Positions 17,794-23,038 of a stretch of 26,575 nucleotides of DNA are shown piece by piece. This stretch comes from a virus, in the IMG/VR virus record IMGVR_UViG_3300010885_011839, positions 1-26,575 of that record. One strand, written 5' to 3'. The number at the start of each line of letters is the position of its first letter. Position 1 is the first letter of the stretch. Under the pieces are notes generated by a model that did no database searches, was not told the DNA's origin, and saw only the letters and a list, made by a program, of their open reading frames with translations. The position numbers were made by a program, and so were the translations under genes.

Positions 17794-17956
17794 ACGATTA
17801 TATGCAGTTCGTAATGGCAATAAAGTAGTAAAACAAGGTAATGAAGCAGTATATTTTGCTACTAGAGAGGATGCTAGGGCATTTAAAAACACCTTAGGCG
17901 ATGGTAATTTCTTTATAACCTATGGCATTGACCATAAACTTTACAAGGGGCAATAA
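17783..17956 (+). CDS. Small early protein, unknown
   Basis: 57 aa with GAGGAGAACGACA upstream; it overlaps the preceding gene by 11 nt. The product has RLYAVRNGNKVVKQG, then FATREDARAFKNTL, a beta hairpin followed by a helix, and a C-terminal strand DHKLYKGQ. This strand-turn-strand-helix pattern with 'AV..G' is common in small phage proteins that bear on DNA or RNA binding, but its role is not known. Confidence 0.55.
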   Translation: MTIKRLYAVRNGNKVVKQGNEAVYFATREDARAFKNTLGDGNFFITYGIDHKLYKGQ

Positions 17957-17957
17957 A

Positions 17958-18947
17958 ATGAGAGCAACGCTGATGAAAGACACACTCAAACGCTTATACA
18001 AGAAACAACGTACAACATGTATAGAGGGTATGCCCGGAGGTGGTAAGACAACCGTAGTACACGAAGTAGCTAAAGAGCTTGGTGTACCATGTATAGAACG
18101 ACATATGCCAACAATGTTGGTTGAGGATTTTGGTATTCTTTACCCAAATGCTGATGGTAATACATTGCACTACAAGTTACCTGATTGGTTTCCAGTTAAG
18201 GGTAAAGCACCTGATGAGGGTATCTTGTTATTTGATGACCGCAACCAAGCCAATGCTGACCTACAGAAAGTATTAGCTAACATCTGTCAAGCGAGAACGC
18301 TACATGGAGTACCTATGCCTGATGGATGGCAAGTAATTAGTACTGGTAATAGACAGTCAGACCGAGCAGGTGCTAACAAAGTACTGAGCCATTTACGTAA
18401 TAGAGAAACAGTTATTGAGTTAGATACACACCTTGACGACTGGACATCATGGGCTATTGACCATAATGTGGCTAACGAAGTTATTAGTTTTATTCGATTT
18501 AGACCTAACTTATTACATGATTTCGACCCACAACGTGACCAAAATGCTACACCACGTTCATGGGTAGAGGGTGTAAGCGATATGCTTGGATTAGTAGCAT
18601 CAGAAGCCGAGTATGAGTGCTTTAAGGGTGCAGTAGGAGAGGGTGCAGCTGCTGAGTTTGTAGGGTTTATGCGTATATTTCGTAAACTACCAAATCCTGA
18701 CGCAATCCTGCTTAATCCGACTACTAGTGATGTGCCAACTGACCCTGCAACGCTGTATGCCTTGAGTGGTGCTATTGCAGAACGAGCTACTGAGGGTAAT
18801 TTTGATAGAGTATGTACCTATGCAGGGCGTATGCCACCTGAGTTTAGCGTTCTGTCAATCAGTTATGCGGCTCGTAAGAACCCTGACCTAGCGAATACAC
18901 AAGCGTTTACTAAATGGTCTATGGAACACCAAGATATATTGTTTTAA
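17958..18947 (+). CDS. MoxR-type AAA+ ATPase
   Basis: 329 aa from the ATG at 17958. GGGG lies 7 nt upstream; the longer open frame starting 36 nt earlier would overlap the previous gene and lacks a site. Walker A is GMPGGGKT at residues 24-31. The segment near 50-62 (PTMLVEDFGILYP) resembles the substrate-loop region of MoxR/CobS-like ATPases. Walker B is GILLFDD at 88-94, with Asp94 where Glu is usual. Sensor 1 is STGNR (Asn130), and LSHLRNRE at about 144 fits the arginine-finger region. A conserved-type RFRPNLLHDFDP near 195 follows. Such ATPases remodel partner proteins together with VWA proteins, and a VWA protein is two genes away. Confidence 0.85.
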   Translation: MRATLMKDTLKRLYKKQRTTCIEGMPGGGKTTVVHEVAKELGVPCIERHMPTMLVEDFGILYPNADGNTLHYKLPDWFPVKGKAPDEGILLFDDRNQANADLQKVLANICQARTLHGVPMPDGWQVISTGNRQSDRAGANKVLSHLRNRETVIELDTHLDDWTSWAIDHNVANEVISFIRFRPNLLHDFDPQRDQNATPRSWVEGVSDMLGLVASEAEYECFKGAVGEGAAAEFVGFMRIFRKLPNPDAILLNPTTSDVPTDPATLYALSGAIAERATEGNFDRVCTYAGRMPPEFSVLSISYAARKNPDLANTQAFTKWSMEHQDILF

Positions 18948-18951
18948 CAAC

Positions 18952-18965
18952 AGGGCGAAAGCCCT
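18952..18965 (+). promoter_or_regulatory. GNRA-loop hairpin between ATPase and next gene
   Basis: AGGGC and GCCCT arms close a GAAA tetraloop, a stable RNA hairpin. It stands 5 nt after the ATPase stop and 16 nt before the next start, between genes expected to be co-translated. It may protect the transcript or set relative expression. Confidence 0.55.
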
Positions 18966-18980
18966 ATTTAAGGAGTTTAT

Positions 18981-19832
18981 ATGAACCTGAATGACAGAGC
19001 ATTATTAGTGCAGTTATCTGTATCACAGTGGACAGCACGTAAGTACGACAAAAAAGTAACGCAAGATATTGCGATAGCTAACCATACAACAATGGATGCA
19101 GGGCGCTATAACAAAGCATTATTGCCTATGAACGACTCATTAGACAATGTGCATAAGAAAACAACTTATATACGTACTAAATTTTACGATAACACGTTGC
19201 CTTGGGGCATTGAAGGAACAATGATGTTACCGACTGCTAACTACCTTAACTTTATGACCGAGTTTCGTCGTGAACATAACGAATGGGAACACTTAGTTAA
19301 CGTATTTTTACTGGATTATCCTACACTTGTGGATAACGCAAAGCGTGTATTAAATAATATGTACAACGATGACGACTACCCTAGTGTAGACGTTATTAAG
19401 GACAAATTTAAAATGGACATGGCTATATTTCCTGTGCCTAGCACCGATTTTAGAGTACAGATAGCTAGTGACGAACTGACACGTATCCAACAAGATGTTG
19501 AGGTAAGAGTTAAACAAGCCCAACAGAAAGCTATTACCGAAGTGTGGACAAGGTTATATGACAGGGTAAAAAACATGGCTGACAAGTTAGCCGACCCTAA
19601 GTCTATATTTAGGGACACCCTAGTAGAGAATTTAAGAGAGCAATGCAATATGCTATCTCGCTTAAATTTTACTGATGACCCTAATCTCGAAACTATGCGT
19701 CAACAAGTTGAGGATAGTTTGTTAAAACATCCTGAAGCACTAAGAAATAATCCTGATTTACGTAGCGACACAGCATTAGAAGCCAAGTCTATTATGGACA
19801 AGATGTCTGTATTTATGGGAGGTATGGTATGA
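18981..19832 (+). CDS. Middle gene of the ATPase-VWA module, unrecognised
   Basis: 283 aa, with AAGGAG before the ATG. The gene lies between the MoxR-type ATPase and the VWA gene and overlaps the latter by 4 nt. The N-terminal half has a NLNDRALLVQLSVSQWTAR motif and PWGIEGTMMLPTANYLNFM near 75-95. Residues of about 145-245 are long helices with heptad-like spacing (EVRVKQAQQKAITEVWTRL, then NLREQCNMLS), probably a coiled coil. It may bridge the ATPase and the VWA protein or act as their substrate adaptor. A match to DUF3150-type proteins is a guess. No catalytic motif is visible. Confidence 0.65.
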   Translation: MNLNDRALLVQLSVSQWTARKYDKKVTQDIAIANHTTMDAGRYNKALLPMNDSLDNVHKKTTYIRTKFYDNTLPWGIEGTMMLPTANYLNFMTEFRREHNEWEHLVNVFLLDYPTLVDNAKRVLNNMYNDDDYPSVDVIKDKFKMDMAIFPVPSTDFRVQIASDELTRIQQDVEVRVKQAQQKAITEVWTRLYDRVKNMADKLADPKSIFRDTLVENLREQCNMLSRLNFTDDPNLETMRQQVEDSLLKHPEALRNNPDLRSDTALEAKSIMDKMSVFMGGMV

Positions 19833-20986
19833 CAAGCGTTATTAGAAAAAGAGAAACTAGCAAAGAACCAATGAGTGTAGCTGACGAAGCCAAAGTAATA
19901 CGGTCTATCGCCAAAGCTAGAACATCATTGGTACTAGAACACGCATTTATAGGAAATATTGCCTTAAATTTACCTATGAAATTGGACTATGACATACCAA
20001 CTGCCGCAACAAACGGTAAAGAAATTAGGTATAACCCAAACTTTATTGAGGGATTAAATGATGAGGAACGTAAATTTCTTATTGCTCATGAGTGCTTTCA
20101 TCCTATGCTTGACCATCCAACACGTCGGCATGGCAGAGATATGCGTAAGTTCAACAAAGCAGGCGATTATGTTATCAACAAGTTGTTGACAGATGAGGGT
20201 ATTGGAAAGATGCCTATTGGTGGACTTCTATCTGATGAGATATATAAGGCAGGTGGCGGTACTACTGACGGCATATACAATGTACTACCTGATGAAGATG
20301 ATAGCGACGATGGTAACGACCCTATGGATGATTGTGAGGATGGTGGTGGTACACCTGCTGACCAAGCACAACAGGAAGCTGAATGGAAAGTACGAGTAGC
20401 TCAAGCGGCTCAAGCCGCTAAAATGATGGGGCAGTTATCTGCAGGATTAGCTAGATTAGTAGGTGAGGTATTGCAACCTAAAGTTGACTGGACTGATGTG
20501 TTACGTAGATTTGTTGTCAAGTTACGTACTGATGAGCGTACATGGGCTAGACCGAATAGACGATTTATTGCACAAGGAATGTACTTGCCTAGTGTAAGTG
20601 GTGAAGCATTGGGTGAGATTGTATTCTTTATAGATTGTTCAGGGTCTATAACACCACCGATAATCAACCAGTTTGGTGCTGAGGTAATTGCTACTAAAGA
20701 GGACTGTAACCCATCAAAAATTCACTTGATATATTTTGATAGTTCAGTAAGCCATCATGCTGAGTTTGGTAGAGATGACACAGTTCACGTCGAACCGCAT
20801 GGTGGTGGTGGTACAGCGTTTAGCCCATGTTTCCAATATCTAGTAGACCACAATATAGAGCCTGTTGCTTGTATATTTTTGACCGACTTAGAGTGTAATG
20901 ACTTTGGTGTTGAGCCTGACTGTCCTGTGTTATGGGTATCAACTGGTAGAGATACTGCACCATTTGGTGAAGTAGTGATGATGTGA
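19829..20986 (+). CDS. VWA protein with HExxH metallopeptidase-like N-terminus
   Basis: 385 aa. The start overlaps the preceding gene as ATGA. An HECFH motif (His87, Glu88, His91) with a nearby His96 and a following AGDYVINKLL matches the putative metallopeptidase domain of the DUF2201 type. An acidic Asp/Gly-rich linker covers about 155-175. The C-terminal VWA-like domain (about 255-385) has the MIDAS motif DCSGS at 269-273, Thr329 in the GGGGTAFSP turn, and Asp353 in FLTDLE, so all metal-coordinating positions are present. Such proteins normally act with a MoxR ATPase. Whether the HExxH site cuts peptides is unknown. Confidence 0.85.
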   Translation: MTSVIRKRETSKEPMSVADEAKVIRSIAKARTSLVLEHAFIGNIALNLPMKLDYDIPTAATNGKEIRYNPNFIEGLNDEERKFLIAHECFHPMLDHPTRRHGRDMRKFNKAGDYVINKLLTDEGIGKMPIGGLLSDEIYKAGGGTTDGIYNVLPDEDDSDDGNDPMDDCEDGGGTPADQAQQEAEWKVRVAQAAQAAKMMGQLSAGLARLVGEVLQPKVDWTDVLRRFVVKLRTDERTWARPNRRFIAQGMYLPSVSGEALGEIVFFIDCSGSITPPIINQFGAEVIATKEDCNPSKIHLIYFDSSVSHHAEFGRDDTVHVEPHGGGGTAFSPCFQYLVDHNIEPVACIFLTDLECNDFGVEPDCPVLWVSTGRDTAPFGEVVMM

Positions 20987-21000
20987 TGGAGTATAAAATT

Positions 21001-21597
21001 ATGGAAATTACTAAAGAGATGCTAGACCATTACCGAGATATAAATGTCATGCACGACGATTGGGATGAGGATGTAAAAAATGATTTTACTGCAAAATTAG
21101 CTACTAAAGGCATAGTAGCTGACGCTGTATATTGGACTGGATTTTGGTCGCAAGGTGATGGTGCTTGCTTTGAGGGATATGTAGACGATATGACATTGTT
21201 TATGGATACGCATTTTACTGCCGACGAATATCCAATGGTACGTATGCTTGCACAGCAGGATAGTAGAGCTATACATATAACTTGTAGACACGTAGGTAGA
21301 TACTACCACTACAAAGCAGTAAGTATAAACATAGAGGTTGAGGAATTTAGTCAACACATGGACACACCGTCAGAATTTCATGAGCAGATTATTCAGTCTT
21401 ACGATACTAAACTATCGTTTGAATTAGTCCCCTTTGAGAAAGATGTTGTGGAAATATTTGAGGACTATATGAAAGATTTATATAAGGATTTAGAAGCGCA
21501 GTACGAGTATTTAACTAGTGATAAAGCAGTAAAAGAAGCAATTATAGACAATGAGTACCATATTAACTATGAGGAGAACCAAGATGGCAACAGTTAA
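21001..21597 (+). CDS. Phage protein with GFWSQGDGACFEG motif
   Basis: 198 aa from the ATG at 21001, with GGAG 9 nt upstream. A start at 20986 that overlaps the VWA stop is also open. The motif VYWTGFWSQGDGACFEGYV near residue 40 is common in phage and plasmid proteins of unknown function, some of which are labelled antitoxin-like without firm support. The chain is acidic with a helical C-terminus. It follows the module directly, overlaps the next gene by 14 nt, and may be co-expressed. Function unknown. Confidence 0.65.
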   Translation: MEITKEMLDHYRDINVMHDDWDEDVKNDFTAKLATKGIVADAVYWTGFWSQGDGACFEGYVDDMTLFMDTHFTADEYPMVRMLAQQDSRAIHITCRHVGRYYHYKAVSINIEVEEFSQHMDTPSEFHEQIIQSYDTKLSFELVPFEKDVVEIFEDYMKDLYKDLEAQYEYLTSDKAVKEAIIDNEYHINYEENQDGNS

Positions 21598-22219
21598 ATT
21601 TTCAGGGGAACTACGTAAGGCTATTACAGATAAAGCAAGGGAAGTATTTCAGAAGCAGATTGATACTGCGAGAGCAGACTACCCAAGTGAGTGGGCAGAC
21701 ACTATTTATGAACGAGGTATGGCTGAGTATACAGAACATATAAATAAACTACCTACAGAATTTTTTCAGAAGTTTGAAACCCTTGTACTTGTTGCAGTAG
21801 GGAACACAATACTATCCCCTAATATCAAACTACAGTATAAAACCCCAGTATCAATACCTTATACATGGGAAGCAGGCGGTAGAATTAAGAGTTTAAATAG
21901 ATGGTCTGTTAACGAGATATCGTTATCTTCAGACCCAATATGGGCAGACATAGAGCAACAAGTTGAGGAATACAAAGCAAAAATAGATACTTTAGAATTT
22001 AAGAGAGATACGTTTGTAAGTAATGTAAAACAAGTTATTGAAGCCTATGAAACTCTAGCCCCTGCGCTAAAGGTATGGACACCTTTATGGGATTTATTAC
22101 CCGAACATACTAAAGAACGACATAAAGAAATAAAGACAAGAGAGAAAAAAGAAGTTAACATAGATGTAGACTTAAGCTCTATGACTTCTGCAGTAGTTAT
22201 GCACAAATTAACGAGATAG
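21584..22219 (+). CDS. Early protein, possible Nmad5-like, unknown
   Basis: 211 aa from the ATG at 21584, with GAGGAGAACCAAG upstream. An earlier ATG in frame is inside the previous gene and lacks a site. The N-terminus (LRKAITDKAREVFQKQI) and the second half (a helical stretch from about 130-165, then LKVWTPLWDLLPEHTK) resemble phage proteins that I associate weakly with the putative nucleotide-modification-associated family Nmad5. The C-terminus VDLSSMTSAVVMHKLTR is a pattern shared by such genes. I hold this at low confidence. Confidence 0.5.
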   Translation: MATVKFSGELRKAITDKAREVFQKQIDTARADYPSEWADTIYERGMAEYTEHINKLPTEFFQKFETLVLVAVGNTILSPNIKLQYKTPVSIPYTWEAGGRIKSLNRWSVNEISLSSDPIWADIEQQVEEYKAKIDTLEFKRDTFVSNVKQVIEAYETLAPALKVWTPLWDLLPEHTKERHKEIKTREKKEVNIDVDLSSMTSAVVMHKLTR

Positions 22220-22228
22220 GGGATATAT

Positions 22229-23038
22229 ATGTATTATGATGAATGTACAGCAAAATCTTATAGAGCAATGGAGGTATGGTTTTCCAATGCAAAAACACCT
22301 ACTAAAGGCAGACCACTAAAGGGGTGGGCTAGAGTATTCAAAGTAGATAATACATACGAAGTACGTAGTAGCAGATGGAACGAAACTCTAATTGCTACGT
22401 ACTATCCTGACGATACAATAGTAATGAGTTTAACACCACAACAAGCTAGATGGACTAGCCCTACACTAAGTAGTGCATTACATAGGGCTATACCAATTTC
22501 ATGGATGCGTAAGAATACAGGTGTATATTCTGTACAACACAACCAAATTATAAATAACTGGATGCAAACACACACTACTTGGTATTCTGTATCTGCTCAA
22601 GGATATGAATATTTTGAGGGTATTAAATTTGACCTGACTACTGGGGAGTGTCTTAACCCTAAACCTAACATACTACTAGTTCCTAATACAGACGCTAGAT
22701 TATTATGGCTTAGGGCTTCTAGGGCATTTAAACATGGTATCAAGGTACGAGCTAGGATGGGAGTACTAGATGCTTTGTGCAAACAAGTTTCTGTATCATC
22801 CGACGATTGGCAAAAACCTGACTGGCATAATGATGTATGGGTATCTAGATTATATAATGATATCAAAGACAAACAATTCTCTAAGGAATTACTACTAGGG
22901 TTTGTTATGTCGTCGGATATAGGATTTTGGAGGAATGAAAGACCAACTACAGAAACAACTATTGAAGCAGTAAATAATGTAATTAGAGAACTAAGCATGA
23001 AACTTAGAGTTAAATTCGGAGTATTCCCACAAGAGTAA
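22229..23038 (+). CDS. Early protein, unknown
   Basis: 269 aa. The start has GGGGATATAT nearby, a weak site. The product is Trp- and Tyr-rich. The N-terminal 60 residues are beta-like (ARVFKVDNTYEVRSSRWNET). A central LWLRASRAFKHGIKVRARMG segment at about 170-190 is basic, and the C-terminus is helical (IEAVNNVIRELSMKLRV). I do not recognise the family. Basic surface and operon position suggest nucleic-acid or host-factor binding as one possibility. Confidence 0.55.
   Translation: MYYDECTAKSYRAMEVWFSNAKTPTKGRPLKGWARVFKVDNTYEVRSSRWNETLIATYYPDDTIVMSLTPQQARWTSPTLSSALHRAIPISWMRKNTGVYSVQHNQIINNWMQTHTTWYSVSAQGYEYFEGIKFDLTTGECLNPKPNILLVPNTDARLLWLRASRAFKHGIKVRARMGVLDALCKQVSVSSDDWQKPDWHNDVWVSRLYNDIKDKQFSKELLLGFVMSSDIGFWRNERPTTETTIEAVNNVIRELSMKLRVKFGVFPQE

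What the first reader, a model, noticed from the sequence alone, without database searches (positions are those of the whole stretch)
17958..20986. Phage-encoded MoxR ATPase, unknown partner and VWA/HExxH protein as a compact operon
Three genes in a row with tight overlap give a MoxR-type AAA+ ATPase, an unrecognised coiled-coil-rich protein and a VWA protein with a full MIDAS and an HExxH site. In cells, MoxR-VWA pairs remodel or insert metals into partner proteins, and some are proposed parts of conflict systems. A phage copy in the early region, next to small host-acting candidates, may remodel a host complex or counter a defence. It may be an uncharacterised system, with the middle gene as its specific part.
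Basis: partly seen in the sequence, partly recalled or inferred. Interest (0 to 1): 0.75.

Follow-up and report, generated by a model that had tools for sequence, protein, structure and literature searches.

The report
Phage three-part AAA+/VWA remodelling machine
Next to its DNA-copying genes, this phage carries three linked genes for an ATP-driven protein-remodelling machine with a metal-site partner and a poorly known third subunit; the same trio occurs on plasmids, and its two-part core is an unexplained core gene pair of phage N4 and its kin.

Summary
In detail: 17958-20986 (+) encodes a MoxR/midasin-clade AAA+ ATPase, a 283-aa middle protein (MID) and a DUF2201-type HExxH metallopeptidase-VWA protein with a complete MIDAS. 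It is not a chance cluster. All 148 of 159 loci long enough to show it have the order ATPase-MID-VWA, and a census anchored on the terminase found the trio in 19 of 19 loci with enough sequence. The trio is a core module of a ~55-kb phage lineage, followed by DNA polymerase A, a RecB-like nuclease and a SNF2 helicase. The ATPase-VWA pair is homologous to N4 gp24-gp25, core genes of N4-like phages, which lack MID. MID is not phage-specific: it has 33-39% identical relatives between the same two partners on Burkholderiales PRTRC plasmids, and it is remotely related to DUF3150, which pairs with MoxR and HExxH-VWA proteins beside ssb-recT-exo on MOBH conjugative plasmids. Best reading: a ternary AAA+/VWA remodeller serving the element's own replication/recombination complex (function inferred, about 0.5). 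A virion-assembly role, already proposed for jumbo phages, is the main rival. Counter-defence has no support. This is a new variant of a known kind.

The parts
17958..18947 (+). MoxR/midasin-clade AAA+ ATPase, 329 aa (phrog_1297; homologue of N4 gp24)
   Evidence: phrog_1297 E 2.1e-71; profile of the family finds midasin AAA domains at E 7.9e-28; start supported by SD and relatives
18027..18050 (+). Walker A GMPGGGKT
18222..18239 (+). Walker B ILLFDD; Asp in the place of the usual catalytic Glu
   Evidence: DD in 84 of 86 ATPases in the set; the two DE rows are phage G and the Planktothrix phage
18981..19832 (+). middle protein MID, 283 aa, third subunit; homologues on PRTRC plasmids, remote relative of DUF3150
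   Evidence: tblastn 33-39% identity on Burkholderiales plasmids; DUF3150 best E 8.7e-4 over 23 members, below the cut-off for the window protein; hhalign vs DUF3150 E 0.0043; BFVD fold hit to a DUF3150 phage protein E 1.3e-17
19829..20986 (+). DUF2201 metallopeptidase-VWA protein, 385 aa (phrog_1314; homologue of N4 gp25)
   Evidence: Pfam DUF2201_N E 1.9e-49, DUF2201 E 9.7e-24; phrog_1314 E 1.4e-99
20087..20101 (+). HExxH (H87 E88 C89 F90 H91)
   Evidence: H87, E88, C89 and H91 invariant in 32 sequences; HExxH in N4, phage G, plasmids and others
20153..20167 (+). NxAxD (N109-D113), probable third zinc ligand D113
   Evidence: N109, A111 and D113 invariant in 32 sequences, same motif in 13 of 14 DUF2201-type proteins checked
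20633..20647 (+). MIDAS motif 1, DxSxS (D269-S273)
   Evidence: D269, S271, G272 and S273 invariant
20801..20815 (+). MIDAS motif 2, GGGGT (T329)
   Evidence: invariant
20885..20887 (+). MIDAS motif 3, D353
   Evidence: invariant
20983..21597 (+). accessory gene D1 (phrog_5162), overlaps the VWA stop by 4 bp; not constant in relatives
   Evidence: phrog_5162 E 1.6e-25; found in 39 of the scanned loci
21551..22219 (+). accessory gene D2, 222 aa, weak Nmad5 similarity; found after the trio in nearly all loci that reach far enough
22229..23038 (+). accessory gene D3, 269 aa, unknown; found after D2

Best explanation
A dedicated ternary AAA+ remodelling machine. The ATPase probably forms a MoxR/midasin-like hexamer; the metallopeptidase-VWA protein is its substrate-bearing partner (MIDAS grips a ligand; the HExxH site binds zinc and may cut or hold the target); MID is a constant third subunit, probably an adaptor or scaffold between the machine and its target. 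The target most likely belongs to the element's own replication/recombination apparatus (polymerase, helicase, nuclease, single-strand binding or annealing proteins), which the machine assembles, loads or turns over in the middle phase of infection. Shown here: the three genes, their motifs, strict linkage, the replication-gene neighbourhood and the plasmid relatives. Inferred: hexamer, complex formation, catalysis, target.
For: Trio order and strand constant in 148 of 159 loci, the other 11 cut by contig ends; 19 of 19 in a terminase-anchored sample with at least 6.8 kb on that side. The order ATPase-MID-VWA-(D1)-D2-D3-polA-RecB-like-SNF2 follows in the related genomes. Pairs without MID in other lineages also lie upstream of replication genes: SBP1 helicase and polymerase, Ab09 with an N4 gp37 (helicase)-like gene overlapping the gp25 homologue, Rhizobium phage TM27A DNA polymerase I, N4 helicase/polymerase, Slicko01 RFC small subunit. 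On virion-less MOBH plasmids the analogous trio adjoins ssb-bet/recT-lambda exonuclease. N4 gp24/gp25 are core genes, middle transcripts, and absent from the listed virion proteins (PMC4193335). Catalytic and MIDAS residues are invariant.
Against: Neighbourhood is indirect. The Planktothrix phage, PA5oct and phage G neighbourhoods show no obvious replication genes. On PRTRC plasmids the trio is nearer T4SS genes. The PA5oct ATPase homologue carries an 'ESI-MS/MS' note that may mean virion association. The pair works without MID in N4-like phages, so MID's need is unexplained. No complex was modelled.
Confidence: 0.5

Rival explanations
1. Virion assembly/maturation chaperone-protease: the MoxR ATPase and the metallopeptidase-VWA protein fold, assemble and proteolytically process structural proteins, as proposed for group 2.2 jumbo phages, with MID as a virion-protein adaptor.
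For: PMC7824862 describes a MoxR + metallopeptidase-vWA pair in group 2.2 jumbo phages and proposes this role, by analogy to Acidianus two-tailed virus tail assembly. PA5oct ATPase homologue annotated 'ESI-MS/MS', structural genes nearby. In roseophage RPP1 four virion genes lie near the gp24/gp25 homologues (PMC4193335).
Against: The same cassette sits on plasmids that make no virions. In this lineage it is on the opposite strand from the structural genes, next to replication genes. N4 gp24/gp25 are middle genes and not in the virion protein table.
Confidence: 0.25
2. Host-directed or counter-defence machine: the module remodels or cleaves a host complex.
For: MoxR-vWA ternary systems with a third component are proposed conflict systems (PMC7159879); some phage zincins are thought to act on host proteins (PMC7824862).
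Against: Core and strictly conserved, not patchy; slowly evolving ATPase (median 81% identity to the window); no convincing PADLOC match; no effector domain; also on plasmids.
Confidence: 0.12
3. Metal-insertion or cofactor-maturation chaperone (NorQD/CbbQO/CobST-like) for a phage metalloenzyme.
For: NorQD and other MoxR-VWA pairs insert metals (PMC13036017); the IncC partners match CobT and CbbQ_C; NorD VWA among the fold hits.
Against: No metalloenzyme client gene was recognised beside the trio; its neighbours are DNA enzymes and unknown small proteins.
Confidence: 0.08
4. Chance cluster of unrelated genes.
For: The pair occurs without MID in N4, SBP1, phage G, TM27A and phiFa within the regions read.
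Against: Linkage in all testable relatives and on plasmids of distant hosts.
Confidence: 0.01

Closest known systems
Escherichia phage N4 gp24-gp25 and Schitoviridae homologues (phrog_1297 + phrog_1314)
   Same: Homologous MoxR-like ATPase and DUF2201 metallopeptidase-VWA, same order, upstream of helicase/polymerase; function unknown
   Different: No MID between or near them in the regions read; Walker B is DE, here DD; about 25-35% identity
MoxR ATPase - MID - VWA cassette on Burkholderiales PRTRC plasmids
   Same: All three genes, same order, MID 33-39% identical, Walker B also DD in those checked, HExxH and MIDAS
   Different: Mostly lies between the PRTRC cassette and T4SS genes; no phage genes; on the Simplicispira plasmid several small genes separate ATPase from MID
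MoxR - DUF3150 - VWA cassette of IncC and other MOBH conjugative plasmids (MoxR/VWA genes also noted in pCAR1, R478, Rts1, SXT and R391, PMC2642839)
   Same: Same three-part logic and mostly the same order; VWA protein has an N-terminal HExxH; DUF3150 is co-linear with MID in profile comparison and the fold search of MID hits a DUF3150 phage protein
   Different: ATPase is CbbQ_C-type and VWA CobT-type in IncC; DUF3150 protein about 400 aa; in IncC the ATPase is separated from the rest by ssb-bet-exo; beside ssb-recT-exo
MoxR-vWA ternary conflict systems (VMAP, iSTAND; PMC7159879)
   Same: MoxR + vWA + third component
   Different: Third component is not VMAP or iSTAND; no effector domains; phage/plasmid core gene
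Midasin/Rea1, RavA-ViaA, NorQD
   Same: AAA+ ring driving a VWA/MIDAS partner to remodel a target; midasin is the closest solved ATPase by profile
   Different: No known shared target; to my knowledge no zincin domain and no MID-like subunit in these

Membership tests
N4 gp24-gp25-type ATPase/metallopeptidase-VWA pair (phrog_1297/phrog_1314) | Full-length match of both proteins to both PHROGs | tested here: met
   E 2.1e-71 over 10-340 and E 1.4e-99 over 17-383
N4 gp24-gp25-type ATPase/metallopeptidase-VWA pair (phrog_1297/phrog_1314) | Neighbouring genes upstream of replication genes | tested here: met
   (with MID inserted here)
DUF2201 metallopeptidase-VWA | Both Pfam domains above cut-off, with HExxH and MIDAS | tested here: met
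   169.2 vs 23.2 and 84.3 vs 26.4 bits; motifs invariant
MoxR AAA+/VWA pair | AAA+ motifs and a genetically linked VWA protein | tested here: met
   Pfam AAA over cut-off, AAA_5 just below it
MoxR AAA+/VWA pair | Hexamer with the VWA protein engaging the ring | not testable with these tools
   no complex prediction available
DUF3150 (PF11348) | Score above the gathering cut-off | tested here: not met
   13.7 vs 24.9 bits, E 0.04; best of 23 relatives E 8.7e-4; plasmid MIDs show no DUF3150 match
DUF3150 (PF11348) | Remote similarity in profile, fold and gene context | tested here: met
   hhalign E 0.0043, co-linear N-terminal region, though probability only 8%; BFVD hit to a DUF3150 phage protein E 1.3e-17; same gene position
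MoxR-vWA ternary conflict systems (PMC7159879) | Third component VMAP or iSTAND and variable effector domains | tested here: not met
   No such Pfam family matched MID or VWA; only weak AAA hits in PADLOC
NorQD/CbbQO/RavA-ViaA activators | Linked metalloenzyme or client gene | tested here: inconclusive
   Neighbours are replication genes and unknowns

The most novel reading that the evidence does not exclude
MID/DUF3150 defines a previously undescribed third subunit of a MoxR/VWA-zincin machine that phages and conjugative plasmids share, and the machine acts on the element's replication/recombination complex: a mobile-element-specific counterpart of midasin-type remodelling, tuned by a Walker B Glu-to-Asp change.
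Probability: 0.35. Interest if true: 0.65.

Novelty: new variant of a known kind. Interest (0 to 1): 0.42.

Why it matters
gp24 and gp25 are core genes of all N4-like phages compared in PMC4193335, yet their function was not assigned there. Finding the same pair, with a constant third subunit, in an unrelated phage lineage and on PRTRC plasmids, and an analogous cassette on MOBH resistance plasmids, says the machine serves something these elements share, and that is more likely DNA metabolism than virion building. It makes the question testable in E. coli with N4 and gives a defined three-protein complex to purify. It also flags a database error: phrog_1314 is labelled 'HNH endonuclease', and many phage records carry that name for this metallopeptidase-VWA protein.

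Tried and rejected
Genome-contig scans with MID alignment A1 and with a plasmid MID found no relative: the patterns were unsuited, so absence from chromosomes is not shown. A viral-contig scan with the Simplicispira plasmid MID found none either. Direct DUF3150 membership rejected. Phage G gp569 as a MID equivalent: coiled-coil matches only, no MID match. MID against solved structures gave only generic helical bundles. Start at 17922 rejected for 17958. 'HNH endonuclease' for the VWA gene rejected: no HNH match in Pfam, zincin and VWA instead; a separate HNH gene is inserted beside it in some relatives. Monophyly of MID-bearing systems: trees left the deep branches unresolved. A literature search for DUF3150 found nothing.

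Full report
WHAT IS THERE. The window is a 26,575-base virus record. Structural genes (terminase, portal, major head protein) lie on the minus strand in the left part, and many small genes and the module lie on the plus strand. The three genes are tightly packed (33 bp, then -4 bp), and the next gene overlaps the VWA stop by 4 bp.

PROTEINS. The ATPase has Walker A, a Walker B with Asp-Asp, sensor 1 and the PR motif. Its family profile finds midasin AAA domains as the best solved relatives (E 7.9e-28), so 'MoxR/midasin clade' is the safest name. The VWA protein is a two-domain DUF2201 protein. Its N-terminal region resembles selecase (MJ1213), weakly by sequence (E 0.024) and by fold (probability 0.94, E 0.06); its C-terminal part is a VWA fold (Z about 12 to VWA/integrin I domains over some 126 residues at about 2.4 A), with the NorD VWA also among the Foldseek hits. 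HExxH, a probable third ligand D113 and all MIDAS residues are invariant in 32 sequences and mostly kept in N4, phage G, other phages and plasmids. MID has no convincing Pfam, PHROG or PDB assignment on its own. Its model is of moderate quality (pLDDT 76, pTM 0.53): a mixed N-terminal region with two long helices and a helical C-terminal part.

LINKAGE. In 159 loci (the window included; some contigs appear twice), 148 show all three genes in order on one strand, and the other 11 are cut by the contig end. To avoid selecting on the trio, I sampled by terminase: all 19 loci with at least 6.8 kb beyond the terminase on that side, up to L183, contain it, one with the VWA gene cut by the contig end; shorter ones run out within or before the trio. 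The downstream order is D2, D3, DNA polymerase A, RecB-like nuclease, SNF2 helicase as far as each locus reaches; D1 is variable. All 16 long IMG/VR records tested encode a family-A polymerase, and one was read in full.

RELATIVES. 533 phage records carry a VWA relative and 651 an ATPase relative, mostly N4-like, plus jumbo phages and others. N4 gp24-gp25 are the homologous pair, core genes and middle transcripts of N4-like phages (PMC4193335). They have no MID. MID itself is found in Planktothrix/Synechococcus phages between the same partners and on Burkholderiales plasmids, where the trio follows the PRTRC cassette on three of the four read. More remotely, MID resembles DUF3150: hhalign E 0.0043 (a single comparison, low probability) with co-linear N-terminal motifs, Pfam E 8.7e-4 for the best relative, and a BFVD fold hit E 1.3e-17 to a phage DUF3150 protein. 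On IncC and other MOBH plasmids DUF3150 is beside a VWA protein that, in the two checked, also has an N-terminal HExxH, with a MoxR-type ATPase and ssb-recT/bet-exo. The MoxR and VWA genes of such elements were noted before in pCAR1, R478, Rts1, SXT and R391 (PMC2642839).

A SMALL SIGNATURE. All 84 ATPases of this lineage and the PRTRC-plasmid ATPases checked carry DD in Walker B, while the MID-less phage ATPases checked, and the Planktothrix phage, carry DE. The Glu-to-Asp change may slow hydrolysis (inference).

HOW IT MOST LIKELY WORKS. By analogy to NorQD, where a finger of the VWA protein enters the ATPase ring and ATP-driven motion strains a linker (PMC13036017), the ATPase would act on the metallopeptidase-VWA protein, and MID would fix the target. 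The replication/recombination neighbourhood recurs in several phage lineages and on virion-less plasmids, so I favour a role there. The virion-assembly proposal for the jumbo-phage pair (PMC7824862) is the chief rival and has some support (PA5oct MS note). Counter-defence has no direct support.

LIMITS. No complex was modelled; the metal site was judged by motif and fold match, not by coordinates; plasmid neighbourhoods were read in about ten records, not counted in all; chromosome scans failed technically; deep tree branches are unresolved.

Noticed in passing
window 19829-20986; phage records: phrog_1314 is labelled 'HNH endonuclease' although its members are DUF2201 metallopeptidase-VWA proteins; the name has spread to many phage records. 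A real HNH gene inserted next to it in some phages probably caused the mislabel.
   Followed up: partly
window 18222-18239: Walker B Glu replaced by Asp throughout this lineage and in the PRTRC-plasmid ATPases checked, not in the MID-less phages checked.
   Followed up: partly
L178 6788-7339 (G001 26788-27339): An HNH/homing-endonuclease-like gene is inserted between ATPase and MID in this relative, which explains its wide spacing and perhaps that of other spaced loci.
   Followed up: partly
window 21551-22219; L178 10491-11111: D2 has weak similarity to Nmad5 (nucleotide-modification-associated domain; E 0.0023 and 8e-4, below cut-off) and follows the trio in nearly all relatives.
   Followed up: partly
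window 20983-21597: D1 (phrog_5162, unknown) overlaps the VWA stop here, is not found in about half of the relatives, and lies upstream of the ATPase in a few.
   Followed up: partly
L165, L166, L167 (Burkholderiales plasmids): The trio sits shortly after the PRTRC (ParB/ThiF-related) cassette and before T4SS genes; I found no description of a functional link between PRTRC and this machine.
   Followed up: no
L160 12051-13091: In the Planktothrix phage a gene annotated as anti-CRISPR AcrVA2 lies two genes after the VWA gene.
   Followed up: no
IMGVR_UViG_3300037493_001128 (L082, L183, L264): A second contig is 99-100% identical to the window over the trio and terminase proteins.
   Followed up: no
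L179 3731-11881 (minus strand; G001 43731-51881): This lineage encodes a 2716-aa protein on the structural strand, possibly an ejected virion protein.
   Followed up: no
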